This document shows positions 2 through 14,835 of a DNA stretch of 43,315 nt, piece by piece. The position numbers and the translations under genes are program-made. Positions within the stretch are counted from its first letter, which is position 1; the number at the start of each line of letters is the position of its first letter. This DNA is from Erysipelotrichaceae bacterium OttesenSCG-928-M19 (GTDB taxonomy: Bacteria > Bacillota_I > Bacilli_A > JAJDGJ01). The DNA is taken from NCBI GenBank assembly GCA_030265585.1, contig JAJDGJ010000008.1:1-43315 (forward strand), in the 5' to 3' direction. The notes under the pieces are model-generated. The model was given only the letters and a program-made list of their open reading frames with translations. It did no database searches and was not told the DNA's origin.

Positions 2-364
2 AATAAACTAAGAAAAGTAAGTAACGAAAATTTAAAACCAATAGAGTTTACGGACGAAGTTAATGAAAAAATAAAACAGTGGGACTATTTTTCAGATGCT
101 ACAACTCAAATTATTAATTTAATCAGCGATCAAGTAGATGTGTTAGCTGCTAGAGATATTGCAATTGAATGGTATAAGTCGTGTATTAAGCTTGGTAAAT
201 TGTTTTATGGGGTAAGTGAAACGACAGATCAAATATTCAACAACTTGCAAATGTTAATAGATGATGTTGATATAGCCAACTTTATAGGAATAAAAAGGAC
301 ATTTATTACTACATTTACAAATGTAGCTAAATACCAAAAAGAGGGTGATGCTAATGTGGTTTAG
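2..364 (+). CDS. Partial phage head protein, probable N-terminal part of a MuF protein
   Basis: The frame is open from the first bases of the window, so this is the last 120 residues of a longer protein. The segment is helical. Near its end it has an IKRTFITTFTNVA stretch resembling the helix that precedes the cysteine motif in MuF head-morphogenesis proteins (family knowledge, weak match). It stops at 362-364, overlapping the next gene by 11 bases; the next frame continues with the cysteine/histidine motif that would normally follow in the same protein. I infer that a MuF protein is split here. A separate unknown gene remains possible because the N-terminus is not visible. Confidence 0.5.
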   Translation, partial: NKLRKVSNENLKPIEFTDEVNEKIKQWDYFSDATTQIINLISDQVDVLAARDIAIEWYKSCIKLGKLFYGVSETTDQIFNNLQMLIDDVDIANFIGIKRTFITTFTNVAKYQKEGDANVV

Positions 365-1148
365 AAAACCAAGAGGCTCCAATCCATGTAAGTGGTGTCA
401 AGCACATGAAGGACAAAGTGATGATAGTAAAGACATAATGTGGGCGAGACATGATAGTTGTCAATGTATGATAGGATGCTTGAGTAAAGGTGAGTTTTTA
501 GGAAGAATTAAAGGCGGAAAGTATCTATATAAAAAAGATAGTGATTTATTTTCATATAATGTAGACAATGAAATTCAAAAAATAGCATCTTTAAGTGTAG
601 AGTTGCCAAAACCGATTCAATACTATAACAAACAAGTAAAACTTGAACAAGTGTACACAAAATTAATGAAAGAAATAGAGCAAGAAAGTGATTTGAATTT
701 GATAGGATTAGATTATCGATTGAAATCTAAAGAAAGCTTTTTAAGAAAATATAGTAATAACATATTATTTAATGACATTAAGGAAATAAAAGATGTTAAT
801 AGATACACTTTGGTTGGGGACTTAAGCAATCTAGGTTCAGAAACAATAAGTATACTACACTCTTTGGAACAAAGAGGATATAATATAAGTGAAGTAAAGA
901 ATACTTGGTATAATGGAAGTAGTTATAAAGGAATAAATACTGTTATAAGAGATAAAAACGGGACACCTTTCGAACTACAATTTCACACACAAGAGAGTTT
1001 TGAACTAAAAAATGGAAAATTGCATAAATTATATGAACAGCAAAGAATGTTTAAGAAATATAGTAAATCTTGGTGGGTGTACGAAAATAAAATGATAGAA
1101 TTGTCCTGTTCAATAAAAAACCCTAAAGATATAGAGAAAGTGAAGTGA
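354..1148 (+). CDS. MuF C-terminal motif fused to RelA/SpoT-like nucleotidyltransferase, candidate phage polymorphic toxin
   Basis: The protein has 264 residues. The ATG at 354 is chosen over upstream GTG/ATG codons because AGAGGG lies 8 bases before it. Residues 12-42 carry CxxC followed by HxxCxC (C12, C15, H33, C36, C38), typical of the end of the MuF domain. Residues about 95-230 match the RelA/SpoT synthetase layout: R122-x-K124-xxx-S128-xxx-K132, D147 and R150, Y191-K-G, E207-x-Q209 with T212, then H224 and Y227. MuF proteins with C-terminal toxin domains are a known class of phage polymorphic toxins, and RelA-fold toxins can pyrophosphorylate adenine nucleotides or the tRNA 3' end. Which reaction this one performs cannot be told. 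A small acidic gene follows 4 bases later. Confidence 0.72.
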   Translation: MWFRKPRGSNPCKWCQAHEGQSDDSKDIMWARHDSCQCMIGCLSKGEFLGRIKGGKYLYKKDSDLFSYNVDNEIQKIASLSVELPKPIQYYNKQVKLEQVYTKLMKEIEQESDLNLIGLDYRLKSKESFLRKYSNNILFNDIKEIKDVNRYTLVGDLSNLGSETISILHSLEQRGYNISEVKNTWYNGSSYKGINTVIRDKNGTPFELQFHTQESFELKNGKLHKLYEQQRMFKKYSKSWWVYENKMIELSCSIKNPKDIEKVK

Positions 1149-1152: not shown

Positions 1153-1551
1153 ATGGATATTGATAAAATGACTGTAGATGAGTTAAAAAATATCTCAAAA
1201 GATGATCTTATTAATTTAAGTGAGGAAGAGTTAGAAAAATACTTAGATAAAATATATCCAACAAGTAAAGAAAGTAAAATAATTGCTAAGAAATATAGAT
1301 TAAAATTAAAATTTTTTAAAATTCACGACATTAATGTAGTGGGAAAACAAGAAAATGGGATATATTATTTATATAAAGATAATCAATGGGTGGTGGATGA
1401 AGACAATATCATCACAGATAGATTAGTTGGATTTGATGAAACCGAACCAGAAGATTCACCTTATAGAATAGGTAACACAGATATGCTAATGAGAATTGAT
1501 GAAATAACTGAAGATGTTGCAAAAGAATTAATAGACAAGTTAAACAAATAG
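1153..1551 (+). CDS. Small acidic protein, candidate immunity protein for the upstream toxin
   Basis: The product has 132 residues and no recognised family. It starts at the ATG four bases after the toxin stop, a spacing typical of translational coupling. The first 35 residues form two short DELxxxSxxDL/EEEL helical repeats rich in Asp and Glu. The remainder looks like a compact alpha/beta domain with several Tyr and Trp (for example YYLYKDNQWVVDED). Small acidic proteins directly behind polymorphic toxins are usually immunity proteins, and this is the only basis for the proposal. A phage structural or accessory role is not excluded. Confidence 0.45.
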   Translation: MDIDKMTVDELKNISKDDLINLSEEELEKYLDKIYPTSKESKIIAKKYRLKLKFFKIHDINVVGKQENGIYYLYKDNQWVVDEDNIITDRLVGFDETEPEDSPYRIGNTDMLMRIDEITEDVAKELIDKLNK

Positions 1552-1559: not shown

Positions 1560-1949
1560 GTGATATCAAAAAATAGAAAGAATAAAATAAAAAAAGCACT
1601 AAACGAATTAACATGTAATATTGAGTTGATTGAGGTATATGATCAATCAATTGCAAAATACGAAGATTTAAAAAAAGAGCAAAATAATCAATTAGAAAAT
1701 TGGCAGCTAGAAGAACTTATAGAATGGAAAAAAAGGCGATTAGAGTTGTTTAAAAAAACTGATTCTTTACTAGCAGGGATTAATTCATTGACAAACGAAA
1801 GTGATATAAAGTTGTACGAGGTTGTAAATGAAAGGTATATAAACAAGAAGAGCATCATTGCAATAGCTCATACAATGTCATTTAGTGAAGACCGAGTAAA
1901 ACAATTATTAAACGAAGCGTATTATAAACTAGACAACTTTATATTATAG
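1560..1949 (+). CDS. Sigma-region-4-like phage late transcriptional regulator (RinA/ArpU type)
   Basis: The 129-residue product probably starts at the GTG at 1560, with AGGTGA just upstream. The N-terminal two thirds is charged and helical. The C-terminal 45 residues (ERYINKKSIIAIAHTMSF, then DRVKQLLNEAYYKL) have the spacing of a sigma-70 region 4 helix-turn-helix: recruitment helix, turn, recognition helix, then YxKL. Proteins of this shape in Bacillota phages activate late genes and usually sit immediately before the terminase genes. Here the gene lies between the toxin block and the scaffold and is followed by a terminator. Family placement is by pattern only. Confidence 0.6.
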   Translation: MISKNRKNKIKKALNELTCNIELIEVYDQSIAKYEDLKKEQNNQLENWQLEELIEWKKRRLELFKKTDSLLAGINSLTNESDIKLYEVVNERYINKKSIIAIAHTMSFSEDRVKQLLNEAYYKLDNFIL

Positions 1950-1971: not shown

Positions 1972-1995
1972 ACTACCCTTTGGGTAGTTTTTTTT
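1972..1995 (+). terminator. Rho-independent terminator after regulator gene
   Basis: A perfect 7-bp stem (ACTACCC / GGGTAGT) with a TTT loop runs into eight T residues. It separates the toxin-regulator block from the structural block and could also be a site where late transcription must read through. Confidence 0.85.
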
Positions 1996-2028: not shown

Positions 2029-2337
2029 ATGACTAAATTAGAAAAAATGACAAAAGATGAGCTAATTGAGTATGCAAGCAAACTAGAAATTGAAGGTCAT
2101 TCAAAAATGAATAAAGCCGAATTGATTGAACTTATAAACAGCAACACTAATGAAGAAGTACCAGAATTCAGAAATTATGTAGTTACTGCAAAAAAATTGT
2201 ATGTTAGAGACGAAAATGGAGAAGTATTAACAGTTATCAAAGAGAATGATTTATTTAAAGGAATTATTGTAGATGATAAAGTAGTTAATGAAGATGGTAA
2301 TACAGTAGTTGCTAAATTTGTTAAGGAGGTTAAATAA
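2029..2337 (+). CDS. Phage protein with Rho_N/SAP-like and SH3-like segments
   Basis: This 102-residue protein starts at an ATG preceded by TAGGAGGTAA. Residues 3-36 (KLEKMTKDELIEYASKL, then MNKAELIELI) look like the small helical Rho_N/SAP-type nucleic-acid-binding fold. Residues about 48-100 (VVTAKKLYVRDENGEVL and onward) look like a bacterial SH3 barrel. Similar small proteins occur among phage head genes without a settled function. The stop overlaps the scaffold start by one base, so the two are translationally coupled. Function unknown. Confidence 0.6.
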   Translation: MTKLEKMTKDELIEYASKLEIEGHSKMNKAELIELINSNTNEEVPEFRNYVVTAKKLYVRDENGEVLTVIKENDLFKGIIVDDKVVNEDGNTVVAKFVKEVK

Positions 2338-2801
2338 TGCCAGGAAATAATGAGAATCAACCAAATGATTTAAATGAAAAAACATTCACTCAGGAGCAAG
2401 TTAATTCTTATGTTAAAAGTGCAAAAGAAGAAGTGTCTACAAAATTACTTAGTGAACTGGGGTTTAAAGATATTGATGATGCTAAAGATTTTATAGCAGG
2501 ATCATCAAAAAAAGATGAGAAACTTACAACAGTTCAATCTGAATTAGAAGCATTCAAATTAAAAGATTTGAAAATAATGAAAGCTATTGAACATGGATTA
2601 GGTATTGATAATATTGATATGTTATCAGGTAGTGATGAAGAGTCTATTGAACAACAAGCTAAAAGACTATCAACATTTATTGAAAAAAACAATTCGCAAA
2701 GTGAAAAAGTAAATAATTCAGAAAACAAAACCAAGACAAAGGATGACTTTGGAGATGCACTCATGAATGCTTTTAAGGAGGATAACAATGTCAAAAAATA
2801 A
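2337..2801 (+). CDS. Phage capsid scaffolding protein
   Basis: The 154-residue product is highly charged, nearly Cys-free and mostly predicted coil. It has KTFTQEQVNSYVKSAKEE near residues 15-32, a pattern shared by DUF4355-type scaffolds of Bacillota phages. A middle segment (KAIEHGLGIDNIDML) is followed by an acidic and lysine-rich tail ending in a DDFGDALMNAF-like helix, where scaffolds often contact the capsid. Scaffolds direct procapsid assembly and are absent from the mature head. AAGGAGG precedes the start by 6 bases. The major capsid gene lies 740 bases downstream rather than next to it, because the tail chaperone intervenes. Confidence 0.75.
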   Translation: MPGNNENQPNDLNEKTFTQEQVNSYVKSAKEEVSTKLLSELGFKDIDDAKDFIAGSSKKDEKLTTVQSELEAFKLKDLKIMKAIEHGLGIDNIDMLSGSDEESIEQQAKRLSTFIEKNNSQSEKVNNSENKTKTKDDFGDALMNAFKEDNNVKK

Positions 2802-3054
2802 TAGTGAATTAGTTGATGATAAATTAGATGTAATTGATTTTGGAATTAATCCAGAATTGATTAAACAAAGGTTAGAACTTCCTATATTTGCTTATCACTT
2901 GGCAAATGTACAAAGAGGAGAAAAAGAAGGTAATTTTGCTCCAATGTTAGATTTGTATGAATATTTGTTCGGTGTTGAAAAAACAAAGGAGTTATTTGAG
3001 AAATTTAAAACATTTGATGAGTTAAACGATTTTTTGGGCAAGTACATGAAGTAA
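2788..3054 (+). CDS. Tail assembly chaperone, short form (gpG-like)
   Basis: The product has 88 residues. The ATG at 2788 is chosen because AAGGAGG lies just upstream inside the end of the scaffold gene; a more upstream ATG lacks such a site. The protein is all-helical and acidic (LANVQRGEKEGNFAPMLDLYEYLFG, shortened here to the general pattern of a helix followed by ..LYEYLFG..), as in siphovirus tail chaperones that coat the tape measure during tail assembly. A -1 slippery heptamer seven codons before the stop links it to a long open frame. It is unusual that it lies before the capsid gene instead of before the tape measure. Confidence 0.68.
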   Translation: MSKNNSELVDDKLDVIDFGINPELIKQRLELPIFAYHLANVQRGEKEGNFAPMLDLYEYLFGVEKTKELFEKFKTFDELNDFLGKYMK

Positions 3055-3392
3055 GATGTTTAATACTTCTTATTTATCATAAAAGAAGTGTTTTAAAGTA
3101 TTTTGCAAAAAATTATAATATTATTGATATCGAAGAAATAACATTTCAACAGTTTATTGATTTATGCCCTTCAGAAAAAGAAATCTATTTTATTGAATTA
3201 GAGCACGAGGAAGGCTTATCTATTGATAAATTATCTCTTTTGTCAATTGAGTTACATATTGATGGTTACATGAAGAATGTTAATTCAAAAACAAAAAAAC
3301 AAGCAACTACAATATTAGATGAAATTGTTAAAAATAATAAAAGAGAAAAAGCAGTAGAAAGGTTTAGACAAAAGAAGGGATTACATAAATAG
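2788..3392 (+). CDS. Tail assembly chaperone, -1 frameshifted long form (gpGT-like)
   Basis: A ribosome slipping back one base on T TTT TTG at 3030-3036 would continue from 3036 through 118 open codons to TAG at 3390, giving a fusion of about 201 residues. The extension (ILLIYHKRSVLKYFAKNY, then EEITFQQFIDLCPSE, then a basic tail ending RFRQKKGLHK) has no usable start or Shine-Dalgarno site of its own near its beginning. Programmed -1 frameshifting between two chaperone forms at a fixed ratio is one of the most conserved features of long-tailed phages. The assignment is inferred from this architecture. Confidence 0.72.
3030..3036 (+). promoter_or_regulatory. -1 ribosomal frameshift heptamer T TTT TTG
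   Basis: In the zero frame the codons read GAT TTT TTG GGC. After a tandem slip both tRNAs still pair at two or three positions (TTT TTT), which satisfies the X XXY YYZ rule. The zero-frame stop lies 15 bases beyond the heptamer (3052-3054) and the -1 frame stays open for 118 codons. Confidence 0.75.
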
Positions 3393-3500
3393 ATACTAGT
3401 ATCTCAAACTAGGAAGCTAAATAGCTTAATAGGTTAACCAAATACCGACTAAATTTTGGGTTATAGGTTTAAATAGAGCCGAATGAAATCTATTGATGCC
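3392..3500 (+). ncRNA. Hairpin-rich leader upstream of the major capsid gene
   Basis: The 147-base gap before the capsid gene holds several short inverted repeats in series: GATACTAGTATC at 3392-3403, AAGCT-AAAT-AGCTT at 3414-3427, TAACCAAA paired with TTTTGGGTTA at 3434-3464, and AATAGA/TCTATT between about 3471 and 3493. There is no terminator T-run and an unstructured A-rich stretch leads to a strong Shine-Dalgarno site. It may be a cis-acting RNA controlling capsid expression or mRNA processing. I do not recognise a known riboswitch. Confidence 0.35.
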
Positions 3501-3539
3501 AGATAACAAAAAAACAAAATTTAAGGAGGTATTTTTATT

Positions 3540-4424
3540 ATGGCAGGATTAGTAGTAGAATTTCCTAATGGAATTCAAGAAGTTTTAGAAAAAGGAGCAG
3601 AATATTCATCTCCATTTATGGCGAATGGTACCACACAAGGTGTTCAGTGGGGTAAAAACGAAATATATGTAGTTAAAGGGGTTAAACCAGGATTTAAGTC
3701 AGCAAATGGTGGTAATAAAAGTTATGGTCCAAACCAAGACACTGAAAAGATTATCGTTAAAGCCGAAGAGCTTGATTTAGGATTTAGAGTTTCTATTCAC
3801 GAAATGGAAGAAGCTAAAGAAAAAGGTGTATGGAACCAATTACTAGCAACTAGAATTAAAGAAAATTTAAAAGAAACGATGTCAGTAATAGATTACGCGA
3901 TTGTAACTGGTAGAGATGAAGTGAGTGGTAACCCAATTCCTTTTTATCAAACTGTGAATGGTAACTTTATTCAAGGTGTTCAAAATGTCATTACACCATC
4001 ATCTTCACCATCGAAAGATATTAGAGATGGAAGAGCATTATTAAAAAGATTTAAAAACACAAAAAACATTGCTTCTATTCAAGGATTTACTGATTTGTAT
4101 GATGAAGTTGATAAAACAAAATTAGTCCAACTTGGAGCAGATTTAAGTGTAATGGGAGTTAAAGTTGAGGAGACTGATGCTATAAGTGATCCAGTCAAAT
4201 ATATTGGAGGAGATTGGTCTAAATTTAGATGGGGAATCAGACCTCTATCAAATGGATTAGAAATGGTGGAAACTGGTGATCCAGACAATAAAGGAACAGA
4301 TTTAAAGTATATGGATGAAGTATATTTTAGATCTAAAATTCTTGTAGTATGGTGTATTACTCATCCAGAAGCATTCTTTATTGTAAGAAATGATTCTACT
4401 GAAGAAGAACAAATAGAAGGGTAG
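3540..4424 (+). CDS. Major capsid protein, HK97 fold
   Basis: The 294-residue protein starts at ATG after TAAGGAGG. It has the expected elements: a short N-terminal arm without a cleavage domain, a central region VKAEELDLGFRVSIHEMEEA with the long spine helix after it (NQLLATRIKENLKETMSVID), and a C-terminal beta segment (VYFRSKILVVWCITHPEAFF) closely resembling the end of HK97-type capsid proteins. It forms the shell of the head. Upstream are the scaffold and a structured leader, and 9 bases downstream is the major tail protein. No prohead protease is found nearby, consistent with a scaffold-only maturation route. Confidence 0.82.
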   Translation: MAGLVVEFPNGIQEVLEKGAEYSSPFMANGTTQGVQWGKNEIYVVKGVKPGFKSANGGNKSYGPNQDTEKIIVKAEELDLGFRVSIHEMEEAKEKGVWNQLLATRIKENLKETMSVIDYAIVTGRDEVSGNPIPFYQTVNGNFIQGVQNVITPSSSPSKDIRDGRALLKRFKNTKNIASIQGFTDLYDEVDKTKLVQLGADLSVMGVKVEETDAISDPVKYIGGDWSKFRWGIRPLSNGLEMVETGDPDNKGTDLKYMDEVYFRSKILVVWCITHPEAFFIVRNDSTEEEQIEG

Positions 4425-4433
4425 GGTTAGTAT

Positions 4434-5024
4434 ATGAAAAATAATGAACATATTACCTATGGTAAGGGTCTGCTTGAAGGCGATCATATTTGGTATATAG
4501 CATCAAACAACTCTGAAGATGTTGAAGCACTAAAAGACATTACAAAAACAGTTGATGAAATACTTCCGAACGCTGTTGGATTAGGTGAGGTTTCAGATGA
4601 AGGAGTTACTAAAACTCCAGGCTATGGGGAATCAGAGGCTGTTAGAAATCAAGCTGGATCTCCTGTAATACATAGTGATGGAGACTATGAGCCAAGTTCT
4701 GCATTCTCGTTAATGCAAACTGCTGGTGATAAGTCAGTTGATGAAGTGCTTTTCGGGAAAAACAATATTATCGAAGATGCAAATGGCGGATATGTGATTA
4801 AAGAAAATTCTGGAAATAATTCTAAAGGGATATTTGTTATTGAGACAAGTTATGACAATGGTGGAAAAGAAAGAACTATATATCCAAATGGACTTATTAA
4901 ATTAAGTGATGATGTTGTATATAATTATTCGGATGTAAATCTCTATCCAGTCACTATTACTCCATCTGTTGATGAATTTGGTAATGCAGCTTATACGGTA
5001 AAATCATCAGGAATTGCTGGATAA
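4434..5024 (+). CDS. Major tail protein
   Basis: The product has 196 residues. The middle region (LPNAVGLGEVSDEGVT, then GESEAVRNQAGSPV, then YEPSSAFSLMQTAG) and the C-terminal part (KERTIYPNGLIKLSDDVVYNYSD, described here by its K-R-xxx-PNG and VxYN pattern, and LYPVTITPSVDEFGNAAY) match the beta-sandwich major tail tube proteins of Bacillota siphoviruses by pattern. It would polymerise around the tape measure to form the tail tube. It directly follows the capsid gene, before the adaptor and portal, which is not the usual order. A strong hairpin after its stop may limit read-through and help keep expression high. Confidence 0.72.
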   Translation: MKNNEHITYGKGLLEGDHIWYIASNNSEDVEALKDITKTVDEILPNAVGLGEVSDEGVTKTPGYGESEAVRNQAGSPVIHSDGDYEPSSAFSLMQTAGDKSVDEVLFGKNNIIEDANGGYVIKENSGNNSKGIFVIETSYDNGGKERTIYPNGLIKLSDDVVYNYSDVNLYPVTITPSVDEFGNAAYTVKSSGIAG

Positions 5025-5027
5025 ATT

Positions 5028-5063
5028 AAAAGGGTAGACAGGCATAACAGTCTGCTACCTTTT
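5028..5063 (+). terminator. Hairpin after major tail protein, terminator-like
   Basis: AAAAGGGTAGAC pairs with GTCTGCTACCTTTT across a short loop, with small bulges. Only about four T residues follow, so termination is likely partial. It may serve to reduce downstream portal expression or to stabilise the capsid-tail mRNA end. Confidence 0.55.
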
Positions 5064-5086
5064 ATTAAATTTAAGGAGGTTTAAAT

Positions 5087-5476
5087 ATGGATAGTTTTAT
5101 AACTTTAGATGAATTCTCATTATTATTTAGACCACTAACAATTGATGAAGAAGAATCATTTGAGTTAAAAGCTAGAATAGTAAGCGATACTATTCGACAA
5201 GAAGCAATTAACAATAATTGTGGTATTGATGAAATGATCGAAAACAAACAAATATATCCAGGTGTAATAAAAGAAGTTACATCAACAGTTCTAGCACGCT
5301 GGATTACTCAACCATCTGAATTTCCAACCTTAGATAGCAGTTCGGATATTATGGATCCTTCAATGACTTTTTATCAAAGTTCGAATATGGGAATAACAAT
5401 ATTAAGAAAAGAATTAAAGAAATTAGGTATTTTAAGGCAATCAATATTTTTGTTGAATGGAGTTGAAAAAGAATGA
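5087..5476 (+). CDS. Head-tail connector (adaptor) protein, Gp19/Gp15/Gp42-like
   Basis: This 129-residue helical protein starts with ITLDEFSLLFRPLTIDEEESFELK, matching the pattern of phage head-completion proteins: an aromatic-R-PL-T-xEE motif and a long first helix, then a VTSTVLARW segment. Such proteins dock under the portal to form the connector. Its stop overlaps the portal start by four bases (ATGA), so adaptor and portal are coupled. TAAGGAGG precedes the start. In most phages this gene comes after the capsid gene and the portal lies well upstream. Confidence 0.66.
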   Translation: MDSFITLDEFSLLFRPLTIDEEESFELKARIVSDTIRQEAINNNCGIDEMIENKQIYPGVIKEVTSTVLARWITQPSEFPTLDSSSDIMDPSMTFYQSSNMGITILRKELKKLGILRQSIFLLNGVEKE

Positions 5477-6660
5477 ACTACTTAGAAAGAAAATACAATA
5501 ATCTCGGCACTAAACTTAATAAAGCAAGATTATATGTATTAAATAGATACGATTTTTATAATGATGAAAACAGCAGTAATTATGGTGTATCTTTAAAGAA
5601 TCATTCTGATGCAATTAAACAAACTATTGATGGATTAAGAAATCGATTGTTAGTATCTCATTTTATAAATGCTAAAAGTGTAGAAGAATATTTCACTTCA
5701 AACTTTATGAATAAAGTAATAAAAAGTGCGTTAATTAGTGGATGTGCGTTCGCTAGAATTGTCAAAAATGATGATGGAAGTATTGAACTTATTCCGTACG
5801 ATGCATATTTTGCAACAGGCTCATTAAACAGTGATAACACATTATATGAGGCTATAACAATTGATTCTACAGATGAGAATGGTAACCCCACAAAAATAAC
5901 TCACTACACCGAAAACGAAATAGTTATTAACGATATTAAATTAGGTAAAGAAATTGTTCTGAAAAATAATGTTGGAGTAGTTCCGATTATTCCAATCATC
6001 ATAAATCAAAATGCTTTAAAACCATTCGGTTCTAGTTGTATTACAAAAAAAATGATGAGTGACACGAAGTTACTTAGAATCACTAAAAAAAGAGCAGATG
6101 ATATTCAAGAAACTTTATCAAAAGCTAATACTTTTCTGCTTGGTGTTTCAAATGATTTTAAAAAAGAATTAGACAAAGAAACACTTGAACAAGTAAAAAA
6201 TATAATAGCAATAACTAAGGATGCCGACTCACAGACTCCATCAGTAGTAACAAGAGAAAATGGGATTAGTCAATTAGAAGATAAAATTAAAGACTTGGAA
6301 AATAGTATTAAATATAACACAAAGGAATCAGAATATTCAAATTTAGTAGAAGGAATAAGAGAAGATTTAATTGAAAGTGTTAATTTAATTGGGAATGCAC
6401 TTATTAAGGTAATGAACAGTGATAAAAACGCAAAACTTAATGGAAAAATTGATATTTGTTTTAAAAATAATGACTTTAGTGAGTTTAGTGCATTTATGGA
6501 TGGTGTATTAAAAGTTAATCAAGTAGTTCCAGGTTATTTAGGCAAAGAGCAACTGGATAAAATACTTGGTATAAATGGGAATAAATCTAAGTTAACTGAA
6601 GCAATCAAAGAAAGTATAAAAACTGAAATTGATGACTTTGATTCAAAAGTAGGTGAGTAA
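5473..6660 (+). CDS. Portal protein (SPP1 gp6-like)
   Basis: The protein has 395 residues, somewhat short for the ~450-500 residue portals. Features are an N-terminal helical part (NSSNYGVSLKNHSDAIKQTIDGLRNR), a beta domain with ARIVKNDDGSIELIPYDAYF, and a long C-terminal helical stem rich in Lys/Glu, ending in an acidic tail. This corresponds to the wing, clip and stem of dodecameric portals through which DNA enters the head. It overlaps the adaptor gene and is followed at once by the tape measure; portals are normally next to the terminase and MuF genes. Confidence 0.75.
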   Translation: MNYLERKYNNLGTKLNKARLYVLNRYDFYNDENSSNYGVSLKNHSDAIKQTIDGLRNRLLVSHFINAKSVEEYFTSNFMNKVIKSALISGCAFARIVKNDDGSIELIPYDAYFATGSLNSDNTLYEAITIDSTDENGNPTKITHYTENEIVINDIKLGKEIVLKNNVGVVPIIPIIINQNALKPFGSSCITKKMMSDTKLLRITKKRADDIQETLSKANTFLLGVSNDFKKELDKETLEQVKNIIAITKDADSQTPSVVTRENGISQLEDKIKDLENSIKYNTKESEYSNLVEGIREDLIESVNLIGNALIKVMNSDKNAKLNGKIDICFKNNDFSEFSAFMDGVLKVNQVVPGYLGKEQLDKILGINGNKSKLTEAIKESIKTEIDDFDSKVGE

Positions 6661-6661
6661 A

Positions 6662-9310
6662 ATGGGTAATACAGTTGGAGATGCTTATGTACAAATAAAG
6701 CCCCAAACAAAAGGCATTGGAAATGAAATCGAAAAAGGAATTCAGCAAGAGACTAGTGGCACTGGCGGAGTTGTGGGTACAGCTATAGGTACTGCGTTAG
6801 GAGCAGGAATATTTACTGCAGCTAAAGCAGGATTAAGTAAATTAACTGGTTTTATGAAGACTTCTATAATGGAAGGTGCAGATTTAGAACAACAGCTGGG
6901 CGGTGCATCTGCTGTTTTTGAAAAACACGCTGACAAGTTAGTAGAAACATCAAAATCTGCTTATAAAGATATGGGACTGTCCCAAAACGATTTTTTGCAA
7001 GGCGCAAACAAAATGGGGTCTTTATTTCAAGGAGCTGGACACGATGTAGCTAGTTCTTTAAAGATGTCCCAAGATTACATGTTAAGAGCATCTGATGTAG
7101 CTTCTATTATGGGTATTGATACTAGCGAAGCCTTAGATGCAGTAACTGCTGCTGCCAAAGGTAATTTTACTATGATGGATAACTTGGGAGTTGCTATGAA
7201 TGCAACAACGTTAGAGGCATATGCTTTAGAGCAAGGGATAAATAAATCATGGAATTCAATGAGCAATCAAGAAAAAACTGGTTTAGCCTACCAAATGTTT
7301 ATGGAAAAAACATCAAAATATGCAGGCAATTATGCCAAGGAAAACGAAACGTTGTCAGGTTCGCTAAATACAGTAAGAAAAGGTTTTGCAACATTAATGG
7401 GGCAACTAGCTAATGGTGATGACATATCCAAAACATTAGAAGGTATGAAAGAGCCTATGATGAATTTAGCAAACTCAATTGTGGATGCAATAAAAAATAT
7501 TGCACCTCAAATAGGATTACTAATGAAAGAAATAGCTCCAGTCATATCACAAGCAATTAGTGAATTAGCCCCAGTTGTTATACCAGCGTTAATTACAGTG
7601 TTAGGTCAAATAGCATCAGGGATTATAGAATCAATTCCAAGTATATTATCAGGAATAGGTGGTGCGTTTTTAGATGCTGATATTGGCGGTAAAATTGGAC
7701 TAGCAATAGTTGGTTCATTTGCAGCGTTTGGATTAGCAAAAAAACTATCTCCACTGATTTCTACAGCTATTAACTCTATTAAAGTTCCTGCAGTACCAAC
7801 TGGTGGCGGCGCTGGATTCGGTGGTTTTATGACTAGCTTAGCAAATGGAATAAGCGCTTTTGCAAATCCTAAAATATTACTGGGTGCAGTTGTCATTGCT
7901 GGGACAATGGCAATATTATCTGCAGGTGTTTGGGCATCAATAAAAATTGTCAGTAATGCTTTGCCAGATTTAGGCAACGCTTTAAATAGTTTTAATGAAA
8001 TTGATGGTGGCAATTTAGCTAAAACAGGCCTAGGATTAGTAGCATTGGGAGCTGGTCTGTTAGCTATGACTGCTGGTGGAATTGTGGATGGTTTATCTAA
8101 ATGGTTAGGTTTTGGTGGTTTTGGTGATACTTTAAAAAGCATTATAGAACCTATTGCTGAGATATTACCAACAATCGATGCAAATCAATTAGAAAAATTC
8201 TCATTACTTTCAACAGGTCTAGGAACACTAGCGACAGGGTTCGAAAGTATCAAAGACTTGGGAACAGTTGGAGAAACGTTAGCAACTGCAATAACTTCAA
8301 TAAGAGATGCAGTATCTAAATTTACTGAGGTAGATCCTTCTGCAATGTCAGCTGTAACAACAATGTTAACAGGAATATCAACTGCTATAGTAGGATTCGC
8401 AAGTGTTAATGGAGAAAATATTGGTTTAATAGGAACAGGATTAGTTAATCTAGCAGAGGGGGTAAAGACTTTGTCTACTTTAGATCCAGCAGCAGTTGGA
8501 TTAGTAGGTCAGTCTTTACAGCAATTAATAGAGCCACTTTCATTAGCGATGACATCTTTATCACCTGAAACTATAACAATGTTTACAAACCTATCTACAG
8601 CAATGATGAATTTAGGTAATGCAGGCGAAGGACTGAGTCAATTAGGCTCAGTGGGAACTAGTGTATCAAATGCTATCAATGAAATAAAAACAGCAGTTGA
8701 AAATGCAACAGCAATTGGAATGGAACCATATACTAATTTAAATAGTCAAATGACTTCACTAAAAACAGCATTACAGAATTTATCAACCGTACAGTTAAAT
8801 CAAAGTCCTATTGTTTCATTTCTAAATGATGTTAGTAACAAAATCAAAACGCTAAATGATTTTGATTGGAGTTCAGCTGCTGCGAAGATGAAGACTCAAG
8901 GTCAAGAAATAGGTAAGCAAATAGTAGCCGGGATAGTGTCAGGAATAAATAACAATGCATATACGTTAAATATAGCTATTAGTGATAAGATTGATGCTAT
9001 GGTAAAGGCTGCGGTTAAAAAAGCAGAAATACATTCGCCATCTGCATTATTTGAAAGAGAAGTTGGGTATTGGTTAGGTGCTGCTCTACCATCTGGTTTT
9101 GAAAAAGGAGTAGAAGATTATACTCCAAACTCAATAGATGCTATGAAAGCTTCACTATCAAAATATGAAACTAATACTGAAACGATTTCAAATAGTTTTC
9201 CATCAACTTTTAAAATAATTGATGATGATGGCTTCGTTTTAAGAATTAAAGCAGTTGTTGATGAAAAGATAATAAAAAACAATATAAATACAGGTTTAAT
9301 AACTAGATAA
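6662..9310 (+). CDS. Tail tape measure protein
   Basis: The protein has 882 residues, starting at ATG 6662 with AGGTGA five bases before (the GTG at 6653 lies inside that site). The first 250 residues match the PhageMin_Tail pattern (DAYVQIKPQTKGIGNEIEKG, then LEQQLGGASAVFEKHADKLV, then SQNDFLQGANKMGSLFQG). Next are hydrophobic Gly/Ala-rich segments between about residues 300 and 480 and helical repeats. The end (HSPSALFEREVGYWLGAALPSGFEKGV) is the usual tape-measure terminal motif. It sets tail length; at the usual 1.5 angstrom per residue this gives roughly 130 nm. The chaperone that should wrap it is encoded 3.6 kb upstream. Confidence 0.9.
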   Translation: MGNTVGDAYVQIKPQTKGIGNEIEKGIQQETSGTGGVVGTAIGTALGAGIFTAAKAGLSKLTGFMKTSIMEGADLEQQLGGASAVFEKHADKLVETSKSAYKDMGLSQNDFLQGANKMGSLFQGAGHDVASSLKMSQDYMLRASDVASIMGIDTSEALDAVTAAAKGNFTMMDNLGVAMNATTLEAYALEQGINKSWNSMSNQEKTGLAYQMFMEKTSKYAGNYAKENETLSGSLNTVRKGFATLMGQLANGDDISKTLEGMKEPMMNLANSIVDAIKNIAPQIGLLMKEIAPVISQAISELAPVVIPALITVLGQIASGIIESIPSILSGIGGAFLDADIGGKIGLAIVGSFAAFGLAKKLSPLISTAINSIKVPAVPTGGGAGFGGFMTSLANGISAFANPKILLGAVVIAGTMAILSAGVWASIKIVSNALPDLGNALNSFNEIDGGNLAKTGLGLVALGAGLLAMTAGGIVDGLSKWLGFGGFGDTLKSIIEPIAEILPTIDANQLEKFSLLSTGLGTLATGFESIKDLGTVGETLATAITSIRDAVSKFTEVDPSAMSAVTTMLTGISTAIVGFASVNGENIGLIGTGLVNLAEGVKTLSTLDPAAVGLVGQSLQQLIEPLSLAMTSLSPETITMFTNLSTAMMNLGNAGEGLSQLGSVGTSVSNAINEIKTAVENATAIGMEPYTNLNSQMTSLKTALQNLSTVQLNQSPIVSFLNDVSNKIKTLNDFDWSSAAAKMKTQGQEIGKQIVAGIVSGINNNAYTLNIAISDKIDAMVKAAVKKAEIHSPSALFEREVGYWLGAALPSGFEKGVEDYTPNSIDAMKASLSKYETNTETISNSFPSTFKIIDDDGFVLRIKAVVDEKIIKNNINTGLITR

Positions 9311-9327
9311 ATAGAGGAGTGATAAAT

Positions 9328-10467
9328 ATGCCAATAGATTATAATCCACCGAAATATACAGATAATCCGGATATTATTCGAGATATGATTGACTTAGCCG
9401 AGCAATTAGGTAGTGATGCGCTAACAAGCGCTGATAAGGATGATTTATTGATACAAATACAAAATGCTATAAGCCAATCTAATTCGTATACTGATTCAGC
9501 AATAGACAATAGTGGTATGCCTTTGCTAAAACAAGTTAAAGAAAATACATCAACAAATTTTTTGACAAGTGAAACTATTAATGAAGTTGTTGGAAGTCAA
9601 ACGACAATCAACAGGAAAAATATTTCATCTGCAAATGAAGTTGATATTGACTATGATGATAGAATTAGTGATCAGGTGGGAACACATGCAATTGTGATAG
9701 GAATAGAAGAGGTTGAATTTGAAGAATTTATTATTTTGGAAACAGTTTCTAGGTTTGAAATAGTTAATTATGGAGCATCAGATGCATTTGATGTATATAC
9801 AGTTTTTGATGATGTTCCAAGTGGATCAGCTCCAACTGGCTCATACGCGTTGAGTTTAAATTATGATAATACAGTAAAGCTTTTAAAATATAGTGCATCC
9901 TGGCAAGAAATTGCTATTTTAAAGATATCGTTAATGTCTATGTTTAAACTTGAAAAGGACAGTTTATCAAAATATTGGTTTATTGATCGTTGGGAAGAAT
10001 TCAAAATTAGCTTTGATGTTGACAATTATGTAGTAAAAGAAGATTATAATCAATTCGTAGTAACAACAAATCAAGAAATTAATGATTTAAATGAAACTGA
10101 TGATTCATTAAAGTTATTAATTGAGGAACTGCAAGCGAAACTAGTGCCAGTAACTTTATGGGAAGGCTCAGCTGTTAGTGGTTCTACAATTCCGCTAGCT
10201 CAAAATGTTAGAGATTTTAAGACAATCAGAGTAACAGTAGCTGATCAAAATGGAGTGATTGATTGTCCAGTGACGCAAGATTGTACACGTTTGCAAGGAA
10301 AAACAAGTTATGGGTCAGGAACTGTCCAGAGAGATGACACTGTTACATTGATGATAAATGAAGATAATTATGTGACTTTTATTAGCACTAGAATTAATCA
10401 TACTGCTTCTGCAGTACATAGCGCAGTAACCACTATTCCTTGTTTAAAAATAGTTGGAATATATTAG
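9328..10467 (+). CDS. Tail fibre / baseplate protein, putative receptor binding
   Basis: The 379-residue product starts at ATG 9328 after AGAGGAG. Its N-terminus (MPIDYNPPKYTDNPDIIRDMI) and helical segments suggest attachment and coiled-coil stalk regions around residues 1-60 and 250-280. The C-terminal 110 residues begin LWEGSAVSGSTIPL and are beta-rich, a pattern common at the tips of phage fibres and receptor-binding proteins. The product probably sits at the tail tip and contacts the host surface. Family assignment is by position and composition, not by a catalytic motif. Confidence 0.5.
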   Translation: MPIDYNPPKYTDNPDIIRDMIDLAEQLGSDALTSADKDDLLIQIQNAISQSNSYTDSAIDNSGMPLLKQVKENTSTNFLTSETINEVVGSQTTINRKNISSANEVDIDYDDRISDQVGTHAIVIGIEEVEFEEFIILETVSRFEIVNYGASDAFDVYTVFDDVPSGSAPTGSYALSLNYDNTVKLLKYSASWQEIAILKISLMSMFKLEKDSLSKYWFIDRWEEFKISFDVDNYVVKEDYNQFVVTTNQEINDLNETDDSLKLLIEELQAKLVPVTLWEGSAVSGSTIPLAQNVRDFKTIRVTVADQNGVIDCPVTQDCTRLQGKTSYGSGTVQRDDTVTLMINEDNYVTFISTRINHTASAVHSAVTTIPCLKIVGIY

Positions 10468-10477
10468 GAGGGATATT

Positions 10478-11932
10478 ATGCCTATTACAATTCAATCGGT
10501 TGGTGGTTTCATACCCCAAACTAATATAAAGATATCAGATACTAGAATTAATACTTTACTATCTAATATTAGGATAGAACGAAAAGTCGGAGGAGATGAT
10601 TTTGTCACAATTATAGCTACTGATTCAAGTAATAATCAGTTCAACTATACTGATGTTAATGAATTTGGAAAGATATATGTCTATAGAGTCAGTTATGATG
10701 TTTATCAAAAACAAACAGTTCAAAACACAACAACAAACAAAGCTAATTTTTGGAAAGAGAATTTTATTTTAAATGACTTAAAAATTGATTCTACTGGAAA
10801 GCTTTATGGAACTGGAACTGCAGTAGCAAAAGATTCTTATTTAAAAAAGTTGAATTCAGATGGAACAACACATTTAAATTTGTCAGCGTGGATTGGGAAT
10901 GGCGGAGATAAAGCTGGCAAGAATAATTCCACTTATGATAATATTGCTTTTGTTTTCAGAACAGGGACATCAACTTTTATAAATAAATGGCTTTTATTAA
11001 CGAAAGCTTGGGATAGTGCCAAGGCTTATTCTAAACGTTTTTGGTACTATTTAAATAAAAGAGATATTAATGGTAAAAGAGTACAAATACAGCTGACAAA
11101 GGATAGTGCTGATGGCATTGATATCCAGCTTTATTTCAAAAAAAGTGGTAGTTCATATACTTATGGATTCTCATCAAAAATGAATACTTTAAAAACTACA
11201 CAAGCTCTTAGTTCCAAAGGTGGTAGAGCAACAAGGTTTAGTATCAGACTAAAAAATAATGCTAAACTAAGCCCCGATTTTACAGTAAAAGTGACAAGTC
11301 CACCTACATACAAGTATGTACTATTAAATACGTATACTCATGAGCAAACTATTATAGTTAAAGATGAGCCAGATGTAGATTACGGTATTGTTATGAACGA
11401 ATATGGAGAGGGTTTCAGATTTACTAGATATGAGCCTAATGGATTACAAAATAGTAGTGGTTATGAAACTAAGTCTGCATCACAAATATTAGACATTCAT
11501 GATAGCGAATATCCATTAGTGTACGTTGCAGACAACAAAAAAACGCCATCTACAGATTTTACAATACTTACATCAAATTTAGCATATAGAAATAGAATGA
11601 GAAATCAAGTAATAAGAAAGAACTATATCTACATTTTTACTCCTAAAATATGGAATTATCAACTCATTAGTGGTTTCTATGCATACGAAACAGTAACAGA
11701 GGAGCGGATAGGTTATTCAGATGATATTTATGCATTCAATTTTAATGGTGCTAGACAAGTATTAAATAGCGTAATTATGCCGCCTAAATGGTCTTATGAA
11801 AGGCTAAAAGATTTGGAACGTAATTATGTGTCAGTAATAGATAATTATAAAGATTATGGAGATCTTGCAGTTAGTCCAACAGGGAATGAAATATTAGGAG
11901 AAAGAGAGTCTGATATTGATGAGATACTATAA
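10478..11932 (+). CDS. Phage tail structural protein, large, baseplate region
   Basis: The protein has 484 residues, starting at ATG 10478 after TTAGGAGGG. The N-terminal ~70 residues resemble a fibronectin III-like beta domain (NIRIERKVGGDDFVTIIATD, then YVYRVSYDV). The rest is beta-rich and includes a Ser/Gly-rich insertion and a Tyr-rich C-terminal region. Its position between the fibre-like gene and small tail genes suggests a distal tail or baseplate component. I recognise neither a standard Dit nor a Tal domain, so the exact role is open. The end overlaps the next gene by 14 bases. Confidence 0.45.
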   Translation: MPITIQSVGGFIPQTNIKISDTRINTLLSNIRIERKVGGDDFVTIIATDSSNNQFNYTDVNEFGKIYVYRVSYDVYQKQTVQNTTTNKANFWKENFILNDLKIDSTGKLYGTGTAVAKDSYLKKLNSDGTTHLNLSAWIGNGGDKAGKNNSTYDNIAFVFRTGTSTFINKWLLLTKAWDSAKAYSKRFWYYLNKRDINGKRVQIQLTKDSADGIDIQLYFKKSGSSYTYGFSSKMNTLKTTQALSSKGGRATRFSIRLKNNAKLSPDFTVKVTSPPTYKYVLLNTYTHEQTIIVKDEPDVDYGIVMNEYGEGFRFTRYEPNGLQNSSGYETKSASQILDIHDSEYPLVYVADNKKTPSTDFTILTSNLAYRNRMRNQVIRKNYIYIFTPKIWNYQLISGFYAYETVTEERIGYSDDIYAFNFNGARQVLNSVIMPPKWSYERLKDLERNYVSVIDNYKDYGDLAVSPTGNEILGERESDIDEIL

Positions 11933-12392
11933 TTCTAGTAAAAAATATAACATGCCAGTGGTTGGAGATGAGCCAAATATTTTGGATGATAATACAACAT
12001 CAACCAGGGAGATAAAAATAGAATGTATTAGATTTTTTGTCAATTCAGAAATTAGTAAAAATGTTGGCGATAACTTTGTAATACAGCACGCTGATAGCAG
12101 TACAGGAATACTCAATGACTGGTATACTGCCAAGAGCGACAAAACTGTAAGAGGTTTTACTACATTTAGTAATGTGATTGCTAAAAGAACAGCAGCAATT
12201 AATATTACTCCACTAATAATCAGTGGTAGTTGGGACTATGATGGAACTAAAGAAAGGTTTGTTATTCCTATCCTTTCACCAATTTATTCAAACGACAACA
12301 TCATATGTTCATTGAGTGGTAAAAGTAGCACAAAGAACTCACTGATCATTAATCCGACATCGGGAATAATAGAAGTTTCAAGAGAGGTGTAA
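11919..12392 (+). CDS. Small phage tail-region protein, unknown
   Basis: The product has 157 residues. The ATG at 11919 overlaps the preceding gene, with a rather distant AGGAGAAAGAG upstream, so the start is uncertain; ATG 11952 is an alternative. The protein is beta-rich and polar (FVNSEISKNVGDNFVIQH, and ITPLIISGSWDYDG), with no recognisable family. Translational coupling to the large tail gene suggests it is an accessory part of the tail tip. Confidence 0.45.
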   Translation: MRYYNSSKKYNMPVVGDEPNILDDNTTSTREIKIECIRFFVNSEISKNVGDNFVIQHADSSTGILNDWYTAKSDKTVRGFTTFSNVIAKRTAAINITPLIISGSWDYDGTKERFVIPILSPIYSNDNIICSLSGKSSTKNSLIINPTSGIIEVSREV

Positions 12393-12394
12393 CT

Positions 12395-12736
12395 ATGTTA
12401 GAAAAAATAAAAGAGTTACTTACATCAAATGAATTGATAGTAAGTGATACATATCCAAAAAATATTATTGAAGATTGTGTAACAGTAGAACTAAGATCAA
12501 TACAACCAAAGAATCAAACAGTAACAACATACCAATATGAGTTAAAGTTATTTTCTAAAGAGAGCATGGAGTTAGCAGTAAAGAAGCTACAGCAACCTTT
12601 ATTCAGACAAATATTGGGTGTTAATAGTGTAGGTAATCCTAGTTTGTCTGTAGATCAAGAAGGATTAAAGAAATATAAAGTTAAAGATTTAAAGATGATG
12701 CCATATATATATAGCATAGATGTAATTAACAGGTAG
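12395..12736 (+). CDS. Tail terminator / tail completion-like protein
   Basis: The 113-residue protein follows two bases after the previous stop. It has a start of the form LEKIKELLTSNELIVSDTYP, a central beta hairpin (QTVTTYQYELKLFSK) and a terminal strand (MMPYIYSIDVINR), the arrangement seen in the small alpha/beta tail terminators that close the head-proximal end of the tail. These normally lie between adaptor and major tail protein; here the gene sits about 7 kb further on, near the terminase. Family call by fold pattern only. Confidence 0.42.
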   Translation: MLEKIKELLTSNELIVSDTYPKNIIEDCVTVELRSIQPKNQTVTTYQYELKLFSKESMELAVKKLQQPLFRQILGVNSVGNPSLSVDQEGLKKYKVKDLKMMPYIYSIDVINR

Positions 12737-12744
12737 GTGATAGC

Positions 12745-13011
12745 ATGTCAATTAAGTTAGATAAGTATAATCACAGCTATATCAATTGGGGAAAGCGAGT
12801 ATTAAAGAACAAGATGATTATACCTGCTTTAGAAAGTAAGATGACTTTACCTCATTATGTTTCGTATAAAGGAAATAGATTAACATTAAGAGCTAAGTCT
12901 CAGAATATTCAAAGAAGTCCTAAGGATAATGCTAGAACAGTTATGCGTAATGCTAAAACAATTAAACAAAAGAGATATGCAAGGTATTTATTTAGTCAAC
13001 TTGGCAAGTAA
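12745..13011 (+). CDS. Small basic phage protein, unknown
   Basis: The product has 88 residues and is strongly basic, especially in the second half (SQNIQRSPKDNARTVMRNAK and onward), suggesting contact with nucleic acid or with an acidic head surface. It starts at ATG after AGGTGATAG, 8 bases beyond the previous stop. It lies just before the long GC-rich gap and terminase. It could be a head-tail joining protein or part of the packaging machinery; no family is recognised. Confidence 0.4.
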   Translation: MSIKLDKYNHSYINWGKRVLKNKMIIPALESKMTLPHYVSYKGNRLTLRAKSQNIQRSPKDNARTVMRNAKTIKQKRYARYLFSQLGK

Positions 13012-13248
13012 ATATCATTCAAAACAATAGTGATAACAAAAGTAACCAATAAAGCCTATACTATCATGTTTAATTAAGTTTTAGTCCAGTTGCGATAATA
13101 CAGAGTATTCAAAAGTGATAAAAAGTAAGGGGGGAGTGATTCCCAACCTACTTAGCACACCTCCTCACTTTACACGTACCACATTTACTGGTGATATTTA
13201 AGGGGGAGGGGCTAAAATGATGCTATTTTGTTGAAAAGGGGTGATGTA
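13012..13248 (+). other. Non-coding packaging region, candidate cos site
   Basis: This is the longest unexplained gap in the structural region (237 bases), with no open frame on either strand. In an AT-rich phage it stands out for G and C runs between 13126 and 13216: a GGGGGG tract at about 13130, CACCTCCTCACTTTAC near 13159-13174, and GGGGGAGGGG near 13202. The first two are imperfectly complementary. It sits directly before the terminase genes, and an HNH nuclease follows the terminase, as is typical of cos phages. The cut site is not identified. Confidence 0.4.
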
Positions 13249-13503
13249 ATGGCAAAGGTTGTAGAAAAGGTAGATAAGGAGCACGATATTTCTATTAATG
13301 AATGGTCCGAAAGCAAAGCTAAAGAATTTTTAATTAAAGGCGGAATGATTAGAACAAAGGTTACTAACTACGACAAAGATGGGAACATCACATCATATTG
13401 TATTACTGAAAAACAAATTGCACCAAATTATCGTCTACATTTAAATGATAAAGAGCCAACTAAAGTTAATAATTTTGAAAAGCTTAAGAAAGAATTGAAA
13501 TAA
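13249..13503 (+). CDS. Small phage protein upstream of terminase, possible small terminase-like factor
   Basis: The 84-residue product starts at ATG 13249, with AAAGGGG 7 bases upstream; the in-frame TTG 21 bases earlier is less likely. The N-terminal half is charged (KVVEKVDKEHDISINEW, then SKAKEFLIKGG), and a beta hairpin and basic tail follow. Its stop abuts the terminase start. Small terminases usually occupy this position, but no helix-turn-helix is evident, so the role is left open. Confidence 0.4.
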   Translation: MAKVVEKVDKEHDISINEWSESKAKEFLIKGGMIRTKVTNYDKDGNITSYCITEKQIAPNYRLHLNDKEPTKVNNFEKLKKELK

Positions 13504-14835
13504 ATGAAAAGGCATACTTTTAAAAAGCGTCAACTTGAAACATTCTTTAGCATGCTATCGTTTAAACCGTTTAAATGGCAATTAGATGCAGTTTGGCAGT
13601 ATTTTAAGAACAAGTTAGACGAGGTATGTTTCATTGCTCCTAGACAAAATGGTAAATCACAAATATTGCTACTTATTGTTTTAGTTGAATTATTTTTAAA
13701 TGAGGCAAACATTACTTTTACATCTCACTCAGTCGAGTCATGTAAAGATTTCTTTGAGAAAGTAAAGCACGAGATAAATGAAAATGATGATTTAGGCTAT
13801 GAAGTGCAAAAGATAATTAATATTGTTGGTGCATTTGAGATTAAATTAAAAAATGGTAAAAGTATTAAGTTTAGGGCAAGAACAAAAACTGCTGGAATTG
13901 GTGGATCTAATGACATTTTAATTTTTGATGAATGTCAGCTAATTACAGATGAAATGATGTCAGCAATATTCCCAACGATCGCAGCTAAGAAAGACAGTAA
14001 GGTAATTTATGCTGGAACTAGCCCTAGAATTAGTGATGATGATACATTTTTTAGAAGGTTAAGAAACACTCACATAAATACTGAAAGATGGGTTGAGTGG
14101 GGTGTTGGTTCTAAATATTCTTTAAAGGAACTTGAGAGTAAAAATCTATTTTTGGATAAGAAACTTCTAAAAGAAACTAACCCAAGTTATGGCATCAGTA
14201 TTGACTATAAAACTGTAGTTAGAGAGTTTGGAACAATGTCCAATTTAGATTATGCAGTTCAAAGATTAGGGTTATTACATACTTTAGAACAAAAAGCATT
14301 ATTTAATTCAAATGTGATCAATAAAATTCTTATCAACCAAGAAGAAGCACAAAAATTTAAAGGTAAATTTATATTAGGTATAAAATTTGGGCTAGATAAT
14401 CATTGTGCTGTGATCGCAACAAAAAATGACAGTGGAATCTATTTACAAGTGTTAGATAAAAGACCAAACAAAAAAGGTTTTGATTGGTTAGCAGATTTCA
14501 TAAACAGAAATAGAAATAGAAATCTACGTGGAATAATGGTTGATGGATTATTTAAGGATAGTTTTCATCCAATGGTTTCAAAATCATTTAATAACAACTA
14601 TAAAAAGATAAGCGGGAATGAATATATAGCATGTCAAAAAATACTGGAGCAAGAAATCGCTACAGCAAGAATTAAAATTGCAAACCAATCAGGTATAAAA
14701 AAAGAATTACTCAATGTTTCGATTGTTGATAAAAAAGATTACTCAAAGTTTGCACCATTAAATAAGGATAGTGATATTGTTGTTGCTGAGGCTATGGCAT
14801 TAGCAAATTATTATGTCAAAGAAAGGTTGAGATAG
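13504..14835 (+). CDS. terL: Terminase large subunit
   Basis: This 443-residue protein is the ATP-driven packaging motor and DNA-cutting enzyme. The ATPase domain has a Walker A-type APRQNGKS at 45-52 and Walker B ILIFDE with D142-E143, followed by an AGTS coupling-type motif near residue 162. The C-terminal nuclease domain includes LGIKFGLDN near 292-300, a VDG motif near 343 and NKDSDIVVAEAMALA near the end, which supply acidic residues for metal binding. The ATG follows directly on the upstream stop. An HNH nuclease gene starts one base after its stop, and the putative cos region lies upstream. It stands 13.5 kb into the late region instead of at its start. Confidence 0.9.
   Translation: MKRHTFKKRQLETFFSMLSFKPFKWQLDAVWQYFKNKLDEVCFIAPRQNGKSQILLLIVLVELFLNEANITFTSHSVESCKDFFEKVKHEINENDDLGYEVQKIINIVGAFEIKLKNGKSIKFRARTKTAGIGGSNDILIFDECQLITDEMMSAIFPTIAAKKDSKVIYAGTSPRISDDDTFFRRLRNTHINTERWVEWGVGSKYSLKELESKNLFLDKKLLKETNPSYGISIDYKTVVREFGTMSNLDYAVQRLGLLHTLEQKALFNSNVINKILINQEEAQKFKGKFILGIKFGLDNHCAVIATKNDSGIYLQVLDKRPNKKGFDWLADFINRNRNRNLRGIMVDGLFKDSFHPMVSKSFNNNYKKISGNEYIACQKILEQEIATARIKIANQSGIKKELLNVSIVDKKDYSKFAPLNKDSDIVVAEAMALANYYVKERLR

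What the first reader, a model, noticed from the sequence alone, without database searches (positions are those of the whole stretch)
354..1148. Phage MuF protein with a RelA/SpoT-like toxin domain
Seen: a MuF-type CxxC...HxxCxC motif followed by a domain keeping nearly all RelA/SpoT synthetase residues (R122, K124, S128, K132, D147, Y191, E207, Q209). Known: MuF proteins of temperate phages carry polymorphic toxin domains, and stand-alone RelA-fold toxins either make (p)ppApp-type nucleotides or pyrophosphorylate tRNA 3' ends. Inferred: this head-associated protein could be injected or released to act on a rival or new host. A motif change (YKGIN where RelA has YxSLH) suggests a substrate different from ppGpp synthesis.
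Basis: partly seen in the sequence, partly recalled or inferred. Interest (0 to 1): 0.8.

Follow-up and report, generated by a model that had tools for sequence, protein, structure and literature searches.

The report
Prophage head-protein toxin, Apk2-type alarmone maker
A prophage in an unnamed low-GC bacterium carries a head-protein gene whose tail end is a nucleotide-making toxin of the known Apk2 family, followed by its likely immunity gene; it is a divergent new member of a recently described kind, not a new kind.

Summary
ORF 345/354..1148 has a short zinc-type head-protein (MuF) motif and a complete RelA/SpoT-fold synthetase domain (aa 90-267). That domain is 37-41% identical to head proteins of Streptococcus, Mannheimia and Pasteurella phages, the setting of the characterised Apk2 MuF toxins, which make (p)ppApp from ATP (PMC12226406). 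AlphaFold2 gives pLDDT 95.5; the best solved matches are the exported synthetase SaEAS and Tas1 (= Apk1). A tree places it among MuF-borne Apk2 domains, in a branch with no characterised member.

The next ORF (1153..1551) is a homologue of IapK-position immunity proteins (45% identity over 80 aa), with an unusual 48-aa helical N-terminal extension. No Aph1 hydrolase was found, as in most of this branch.

Caveats: the MuF part is incomplete. The contig starts inside the operon, and the upstream ORF (2..364) and toxin ORF lie in different, overlapping frames: frameshift or split gene cannot be told apart. The zinc motif resembles MuF3 (phage SM1 gp35), whereas ten other Apk2 carriers tested are MuF1 or MuF2: a new pairing. 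Product, toxicity and virion delivery are inferred. Novelty: new member of a known kind.

The parts
2..364 (+). ORF (120 aa, open at the contig start) that overlaps the toxin ORF in another frame; by position and coding signal probably the N-terminal helical part of the MuF head protein
   Evidence: codon-usage signal switches from this frame to the toxin ORF's frame at about 320-364; no homologue found (hhalign vs MuF3-like core negative)
354..497 (+). Zinc-type MuF motif CKWC...HDSCQC, resembling the MuF3-like minor head proteins of phages SM1, MissG1, Javan551 and Str-PAP-1
   Evidence: phrog_2494 minor head protein E=9.5e-4; profile of SM1 gp35-like proteins E=3.7e-6; the only Apk2 carrier in the set that matches it
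612..1145 (+). Apk2tox-like RelA/SpoT-fold synthetase domain (aa 90-267): GLDYRLKS, D150-x-x-RYT, VKNTW, YKGINT, FELQFHT, LKNGKLHKLYE (numbering from 345)
   Evidence: 37-41% identity to Apk2-type phage proteins; AF2 pLDDT 95.5; Foldseek to SaEAS 8vx3 and Tas1 6ox6; tree
345..1148 (+). Complete ORF holding zinc motif and toxin domain (267 aa from GTG 345; 264 aa from ATG 354)
1153..1551 (+). Probable immunity protein: IapK-like domain (aa 52-130) with an extra 48-aa helical N-terminal extension
   Evidence: 45% identity over 80 aa to the IapK-position protein of L050 (E=2.8e-20) and 40% to L039; IapK profile E=6.6e-5, next decoy 0.95; AF2 pLDDT 90.1
1560..1949 (+). Sigma-70 region 4 / late-transcription-regulator-like gene in the same run of genes
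   Evidence: phrog_36 transcriptional regulator E=1.1e-5; Sigma70_r4 E=0.0025, below cut-off
1972..1988 (+). Intrinsic-terminator-like hairpin with T tract closing the run MuF-toxin / immunity / regulator
   Evidence: 1 found, 0.1 expected in shuffles

Best explanation
This is a prophage-borne MuF polymorphic toxin of the Apk2 kind with its immunity protein. The C-terminal domain of the minor head protein binds ATP as pyrophosphate donor and most likely ATP/ADP as acceptor, making (p)ppApp, which drains the adenylate pool and stops or kills the cell. The gene just downstream encodes an IapK-type protein that would protect the lysogen by binding the toxin and blocking its acceptor site. Shown here: sequence, predicted fold, complete motifs, phylogenetic place, immunity homologue and prophage setting. 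Inferred: enzymatic product, toxicity, neutralisation, and delivery with the phage head or DNA. Whether this copy is still made as one fused head protein is open because of the frame change at about 354-364.
For: tblastn to Apk2-type phage head proteins, 37-41% identity, in phages of the same genera as the characterised S. pneumoniae, M. haemolytica and P. multocida Apk2 (PMC12226406). These loci have the published apk2-iapK-aph1 order. All 14 columns invariant over 35 relatives are kept, including the catalytic Asp and the RYT signature, with GxN nearly invariant. AF2 pLDDT 95.5; Foldseek best SaEAS 8vx3 1.7e-11 and Tas1 6ox6 8.5e-8, ahead of all other (p)ppGpp synthetases; profile search 8vx3 8.9e-33. 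Tree: inside the MuF-borne group, support 99/98. Downstream IapK homologue. Prophage context: scaffold, portal, tape measure, terminase, lysin; SM1-like homologues.
Against: No product was measured. The two members with in-vitro product data in the paper read (S. pneumoniae, M. haemolytica) lie in the sister branch; the window's branch (100/97) has none and mostly lacks Aph1, the (p)ppApp hydrolase (3 of 27 loci with enough flank, versus 9 of 11 in the characterised branch). SaEAS, with the same syn2/syn3 motifs, prefers guanylates (PMC12691689). The MuF N-terminal part is not shown: the upstream ORF is in another frame and has no homologue.
Confidence: 0.87

Rival explanations
1. Same fold and toxin role, but the product is wholly or partly (p)ppGpp (or a mixture), as in SaEAS, VpEAS or AaEAS.
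For: The closest solved structure is SaEAS, which carries RYT and YKGLNT but prefers guanylate acceptors (PMC12691689). No member of the window's branch is known to be characterised, and Aph1, the (p)ppApp-hydrolysing immunity, is missing here and rare in the branch.
Against: The MuF-borne group is well supported (99/98) and the tested members make only pppApp (PMC12226406). Three loci in the window's own branch do carry Aph1-like HD proteins, which fits a (p)ppApp product.
Confidence: 0.1
2. tRNA-targeting toxSAS (pyrophosphorylates the tRNA 3' CCA end), like FaRel2 or PhRel.
Against: No tRNA-targeting toxSAS appears among the sequence or fold matches. The phage-head setting, IapK-type immunity and nearest relatives are all Apk2. 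FaRel2/PhRel were not compared directly.
Confidence: 0.02
3. Decaying copy (compatible with the family assignment): a frameshift has cut the MuF head protein, so the toxin half is no longer loaded into virions and is at most a leftover kept with its immunity gene.
For: ORF 2..364 and 345..1148 overlap in different frames with a clean switch of coding signal. In SM1-like phages and nearly all full-length Apk2 loci the head part, zinc motif and toxin or C-terminal extension are one ORF. Gene order in this prophage is scrambled relative to SM1-like phages.
Against: The toxin and immunity ORFs are intact with every catalytic residue. An ATG (354) with a GAGGGTG Shine-Dalgarno-like stretch at good spacing sits at the overlap, so coupled translation of two proteins is possible. 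The break is within 364 bases of a contig end, where assembly errors are common. Tail, portal, terminase and lysin ORFs look intact.
Confidence: 0.35

Closest known systems
Apk2 (MuF-adenosine 3'-pyrophosphokinase) of S. pneumoniae, M. haemolytica, P. multocida and B. caccae prophages (PMC12226406)
   Same: Synthetase domain at the C-terminus of a phage head protein, same syn motifs (RYT, GxN), IapK-type immunity gene directly downstream, temperate phage
   Different: About 40% identity only; lies in a sister branch; no Aph1; carrier is MuF3-like rather than MuF1/MuF2; MuF part in a different, overlapping frame; immunity protein has a 48-aa N-terminal extension
Apk1/Tas1 (T6SS PAAR effector, 6ox6)
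   Same: RelA/SpoT fold and toxin-immunity arrangement; Foldseek E=8.5e-8
   Different: Delivered by type VI secretion; only 20% identity in the structural alignment
SaEAS (exported alarmone synthetase of Streptomyces albidoflavus, 8vx3; PMC12691689)
   Same: Best structural and profile match; aligned RYT and GxN motifs
MuF3 minor head protein family (phage SM1 gp35; PMC5576092)
   Same: Zinc motif CKWC...H..C.C; prophage shares homologues of SM1-like portal, terminase, scaffold, capsid, adaptor and tail genes
   Different: SM1 gp35 carries a predicted nuclease instead of a synthetase (PMC5576092); the N-terminal 180 aa are not recognisable in the window

Membership tests
Apk2 (MuF-borne adenosine 3'-pyrophosphokinase) | C-terminal RelA/SpoT-fold synthetase domain with Apk-type syn motifs (RYT in syn2, GxN in syn3) | tested here: met
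   motifs RYT, YKGINT
Apk2 (MuF-borne adenosine 3'-pyrophosphokinase) | Phylogenetic place among MuF-borne domains, apart from exported and T3SS-linked synthetases | tested here: met
   50-row group support 99/98; but long end branch (0.93) and no small well-supported group around it
Apk2 (MuF-borne adenosine 3'-pyrophosphokinase) | N-terminal MuF head-protein domain in the same polypeptide | tested here: inconclusive
   Zinc motif present and MuF3-like, but the helical N-terminal part is cut by the contig start and lies in another frame; PF04233/PF06152 not hit
Apk2 (MuF-borne adenosine 3'-pyrophosphokinase) | Cognate IapK immunity gene immediately downstream | tested here: met
   1153..1551, 45% identity over 80 aa to an Apk2-linked IapK-position protein, E=2.8e-20; profile E=6.6e-5
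Apk2 (MuF-borne adenosine 3'-pyrophosphokinase) | Aph1 hydrolase as second immunity (accessory: absent from most of this branch, so not taken as defining) | tested here: not met
   No HD_4 gene in the held genome except the 734-aa Rel; genome 62% complete
Apk2 (MuF-borne adenosine 3'-pyrophosphokinase) | Makes (p)ppApp from ATP and is toxic | not testable with these tools
   Needs enzyme and growth assays
MuF polymorphic toxins | In a temperate phage or prophage, toxin gene followed by a small ORF under 150 aa | tested here: met
   Prophage genes at about 1-19.4 kb next to host ribosomal-protein/RimM/TrmD-like genes (host genes named by eye from their sequences); 132-aa downstream ORF
MuF polymorphic toxins | Gene lies just downstream of the portal gene | tested here: inconclusive
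   Contig starts at the gene; a portal gene lies at 5473..6660 instead
tRNA-targeting toxSAS | Sequence or fold closest to FaRel2/PhRel/CapRel | tested here: not met
   None among the matches

The most novel reading that the evidence does not exclude
The window represents a branch of phage-head alarmone-synthetase toxins that is biochemically uncharacterised, carried here on a MuF3-type head protein whose helical half and toxin half are made as two separate, translationally coupled proteins. This branch relies on protein-blocking immunity alone and may make a different alarmone mixture.
Probability: 0.12. Interest if true: 0.5.

Novelty: new member of a known kind. Interest (0 to 1): 0.27.

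Why it matters
It extends the Apk2 phage-toxin family to a divergent prophage in a branch without a known characterised member, adds what looks like a new head-protein carrier (MuF3-like), and shows that most of its branch has only the binding-type immunity protein and no (p)ppApp hydrolase next to it. Testing one such member would show whether (p)ppApp is the product across the whole family. It does not change the known picture of the mechanism.

Tried and rejected
Direct protein scans of viral contigs and genome contigs with the whole ORF, and of viral contigs with the terminase, found nothing; the Apk2tox alignment found 127 viral and 34 genome relatives. Upstream ORF 2..364: no homologue in phages, 395 genomes of the class, Pfam or PHROGs beyond weak hits; reading it through into the toxin ORF raised no MuF family score, so continuity with the zinc motif is not proved by homology. 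A MuF profile from other Apk2 carriers did not match the window; only the SM1 gp35-like profile did. The fold search of the immunity model in the PDB gave no match. Close relatives of the host lack the toxin (of 60 genomes only the window's own and one weak hit) and the nearest eight lack the terminase, which speaks against a domesticated element. A programmed +1 frameshift at GTT-TAG was considered: the Shine-Dalgarno-like stretch suits initiation at ATG 354 better than prfB-type slippage (my judgement, untested).

Full report
Observation. The window is contig C75 of a 62%-complete, 1.12 Mb draft genome. ORF 345/354..1148 exists as described. PHROGs, tblastn, NCBIfam (a XopAD-type synthetase region) and the PDB all identify the C-terminal 178 aa as a RelA/SpoT-fold synthetase, although Pfam's RelA_SpoT model misses its cut-off.

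What it is. The best matches are head proteins of Streptococcus, Mannheimia and Pasteurella phages. Their loci show the gene order published for Apk2: toxin, IapK of about 70 aa, Aph1 of about 138 aa (PMC12226406). The alignment keeps GLDYRLKS, RYT, KNTW, YKGINT, FELQFHT and LKNGKLH. RYT and GxN are the published adenosine signatures. An alignment-based scan returned 127 viral (80 kept) and 34 genome relatives, the nearest about 47% identical. A maximum-likelihood tree of 58 domains puts the window inside the MuF-borne group (99/98), within a 33-row branch (100/97) holding Lachnospiraceae, Paenibacillaceae and other Bacillota and none of the three domains taken to stand for the characterised ones, which sit in the sister branch; the window is on a long branch, so its exact place is unsure. 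The AlphaFold2 model is confident (95.5). Its best solved neighbours are SaEAS and Tas1, then (p)ppGpp synthetases. In the sequence alignment the window's D150 falls on the mutated catalytic Asp of the SaEAS crystal (D121A, PMC12691689).

Immunity. The ORF at 1153..1551 was unassigned by the libraries searched. A profile built from the small ORFs that follow Apk2 genes in other phages finds it as the only significant match among 464 window frames (E=6.6e-5, next 0.95). Pairwise it is 45% identical over 80 aa to the corresponding protein of L050. It differs by a 48-aa helical N-terminal extension that no other member of the set has. No Aph1 follows, and the only HD_4 gene in the held genome is the housekeeping Rel. 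Aph1 was found at 9 of 11 loci of the characterised branch but only 3 of 27 loci of the window's branch with at least 1.5 kb of flank, so IapK-only protection is usual there.

Carrier. The zinc motif does not score as Phage_Mu_F or Phage_min_cap2, the carriers found in ten other Apk2 proteins tested. It matches the SM1 gp35-like minor head proteins; SM1 gp35 is the seed of the MuF3 family (PMC5576092). It is the only Apk2 in the set to do so. Several other prophage genes are also SM1-like, in scrambled order.

The frame break. Upstream ORF 2..364 is cut by the contig start and overlaps the toxin ORF in a different frame. Coding signal passes cleanly from one frame to the other at about 320-364. 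In SM1-like phages and in nearly all complete Apk2 loci the head part and zinc motif are one ORF. Three readings remain: an assembly error near a contig end, a real frameshift, or two coupled genes with re-initiation at ATG 354. The upstream ORF has no detectable homologue, so even its identity as the MuF N-terminus rests on position.

Mechanism. By homology, the domain transfers pyrophosphate from ATP to the 3'-OH of ATP/ADP, giving (p)ppApp; this depletes adenylates and kills or arrests the cell, and the IapK-like protein blocks the acceptor site (activities and immunity mode from PMC12226406). None of this was measured for this protein. The product claim is weaker than the fold claim, since SaEAS with the same motifs prefers guanylates (PMC12691689). 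Delivery with the phage DNA is a hypothesis for all MuF toxins (PMC5576092).

Verdict. A real, probably functional toxin-immunity pair of a known kind, divergent and on an unusual carrier. Interest is moderate to low because the class, its product signature and its immunity logic were published between 2017 and 2025.

Noticed in passing
window 2337-15115: Homologues of the SM1-like phage genes (scaffold, capsid, major tail, head-tail adaptor, portal, tape measure, terminase, HNH) are present, but their order is scrambled relative to SM1/MissG1/Javan551: portal between adaptor and tape measure, terminase then HNH near the lysis genes.
   Followed up: partly
window 18571-19371: Abi_2 (AbiD/AbiF-like) abortive-infection gene at the prophage's right end (Pfam PF07751 E=3.9e-11), beside two unannotated ORFs at 16941 and 17692.
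   Followed up: no
L008 (Haemophilus phage Aaphi23), 2141-4543: The Apk2-type head protein appears to hold a large intein/Hint-like insertion inside its MuF zinc-motif region (FNCFPGQ...FVSNCRC); L107 has a similar length.
   Followed up: no
L057 3903-6767: Mannheimia-type prophage in which the MuF ORF (581 aa) is followed by a small ORF, and an orphan Apk2tox cassette (218 aa) with IapK and Aph1 lies behind it: looks like a displaced toxin cassette.
   Followed up: partly
L098, L099 downstream of the toxin ORF: IapK-like and Aph1-like immunity domains fused into one 382-aa protein in Clostridia MAGs.
   Followed up: no
L108, L110 (Clostridia MAGs): Related synthetases of 219-252 aa with a signal-peptide-like N-terminus: probable exported alarmone synthetases in Clostridia, each with a similar small ORF nearby.
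   Followed up: no
window 1153-1296: The 48-aa helical extension of the immunity protein weakly resembles the Rho_N/HeH-like N-terminus of the nearby ORF 2029-2337 (both hit phrog_2724).
   Followed up: no
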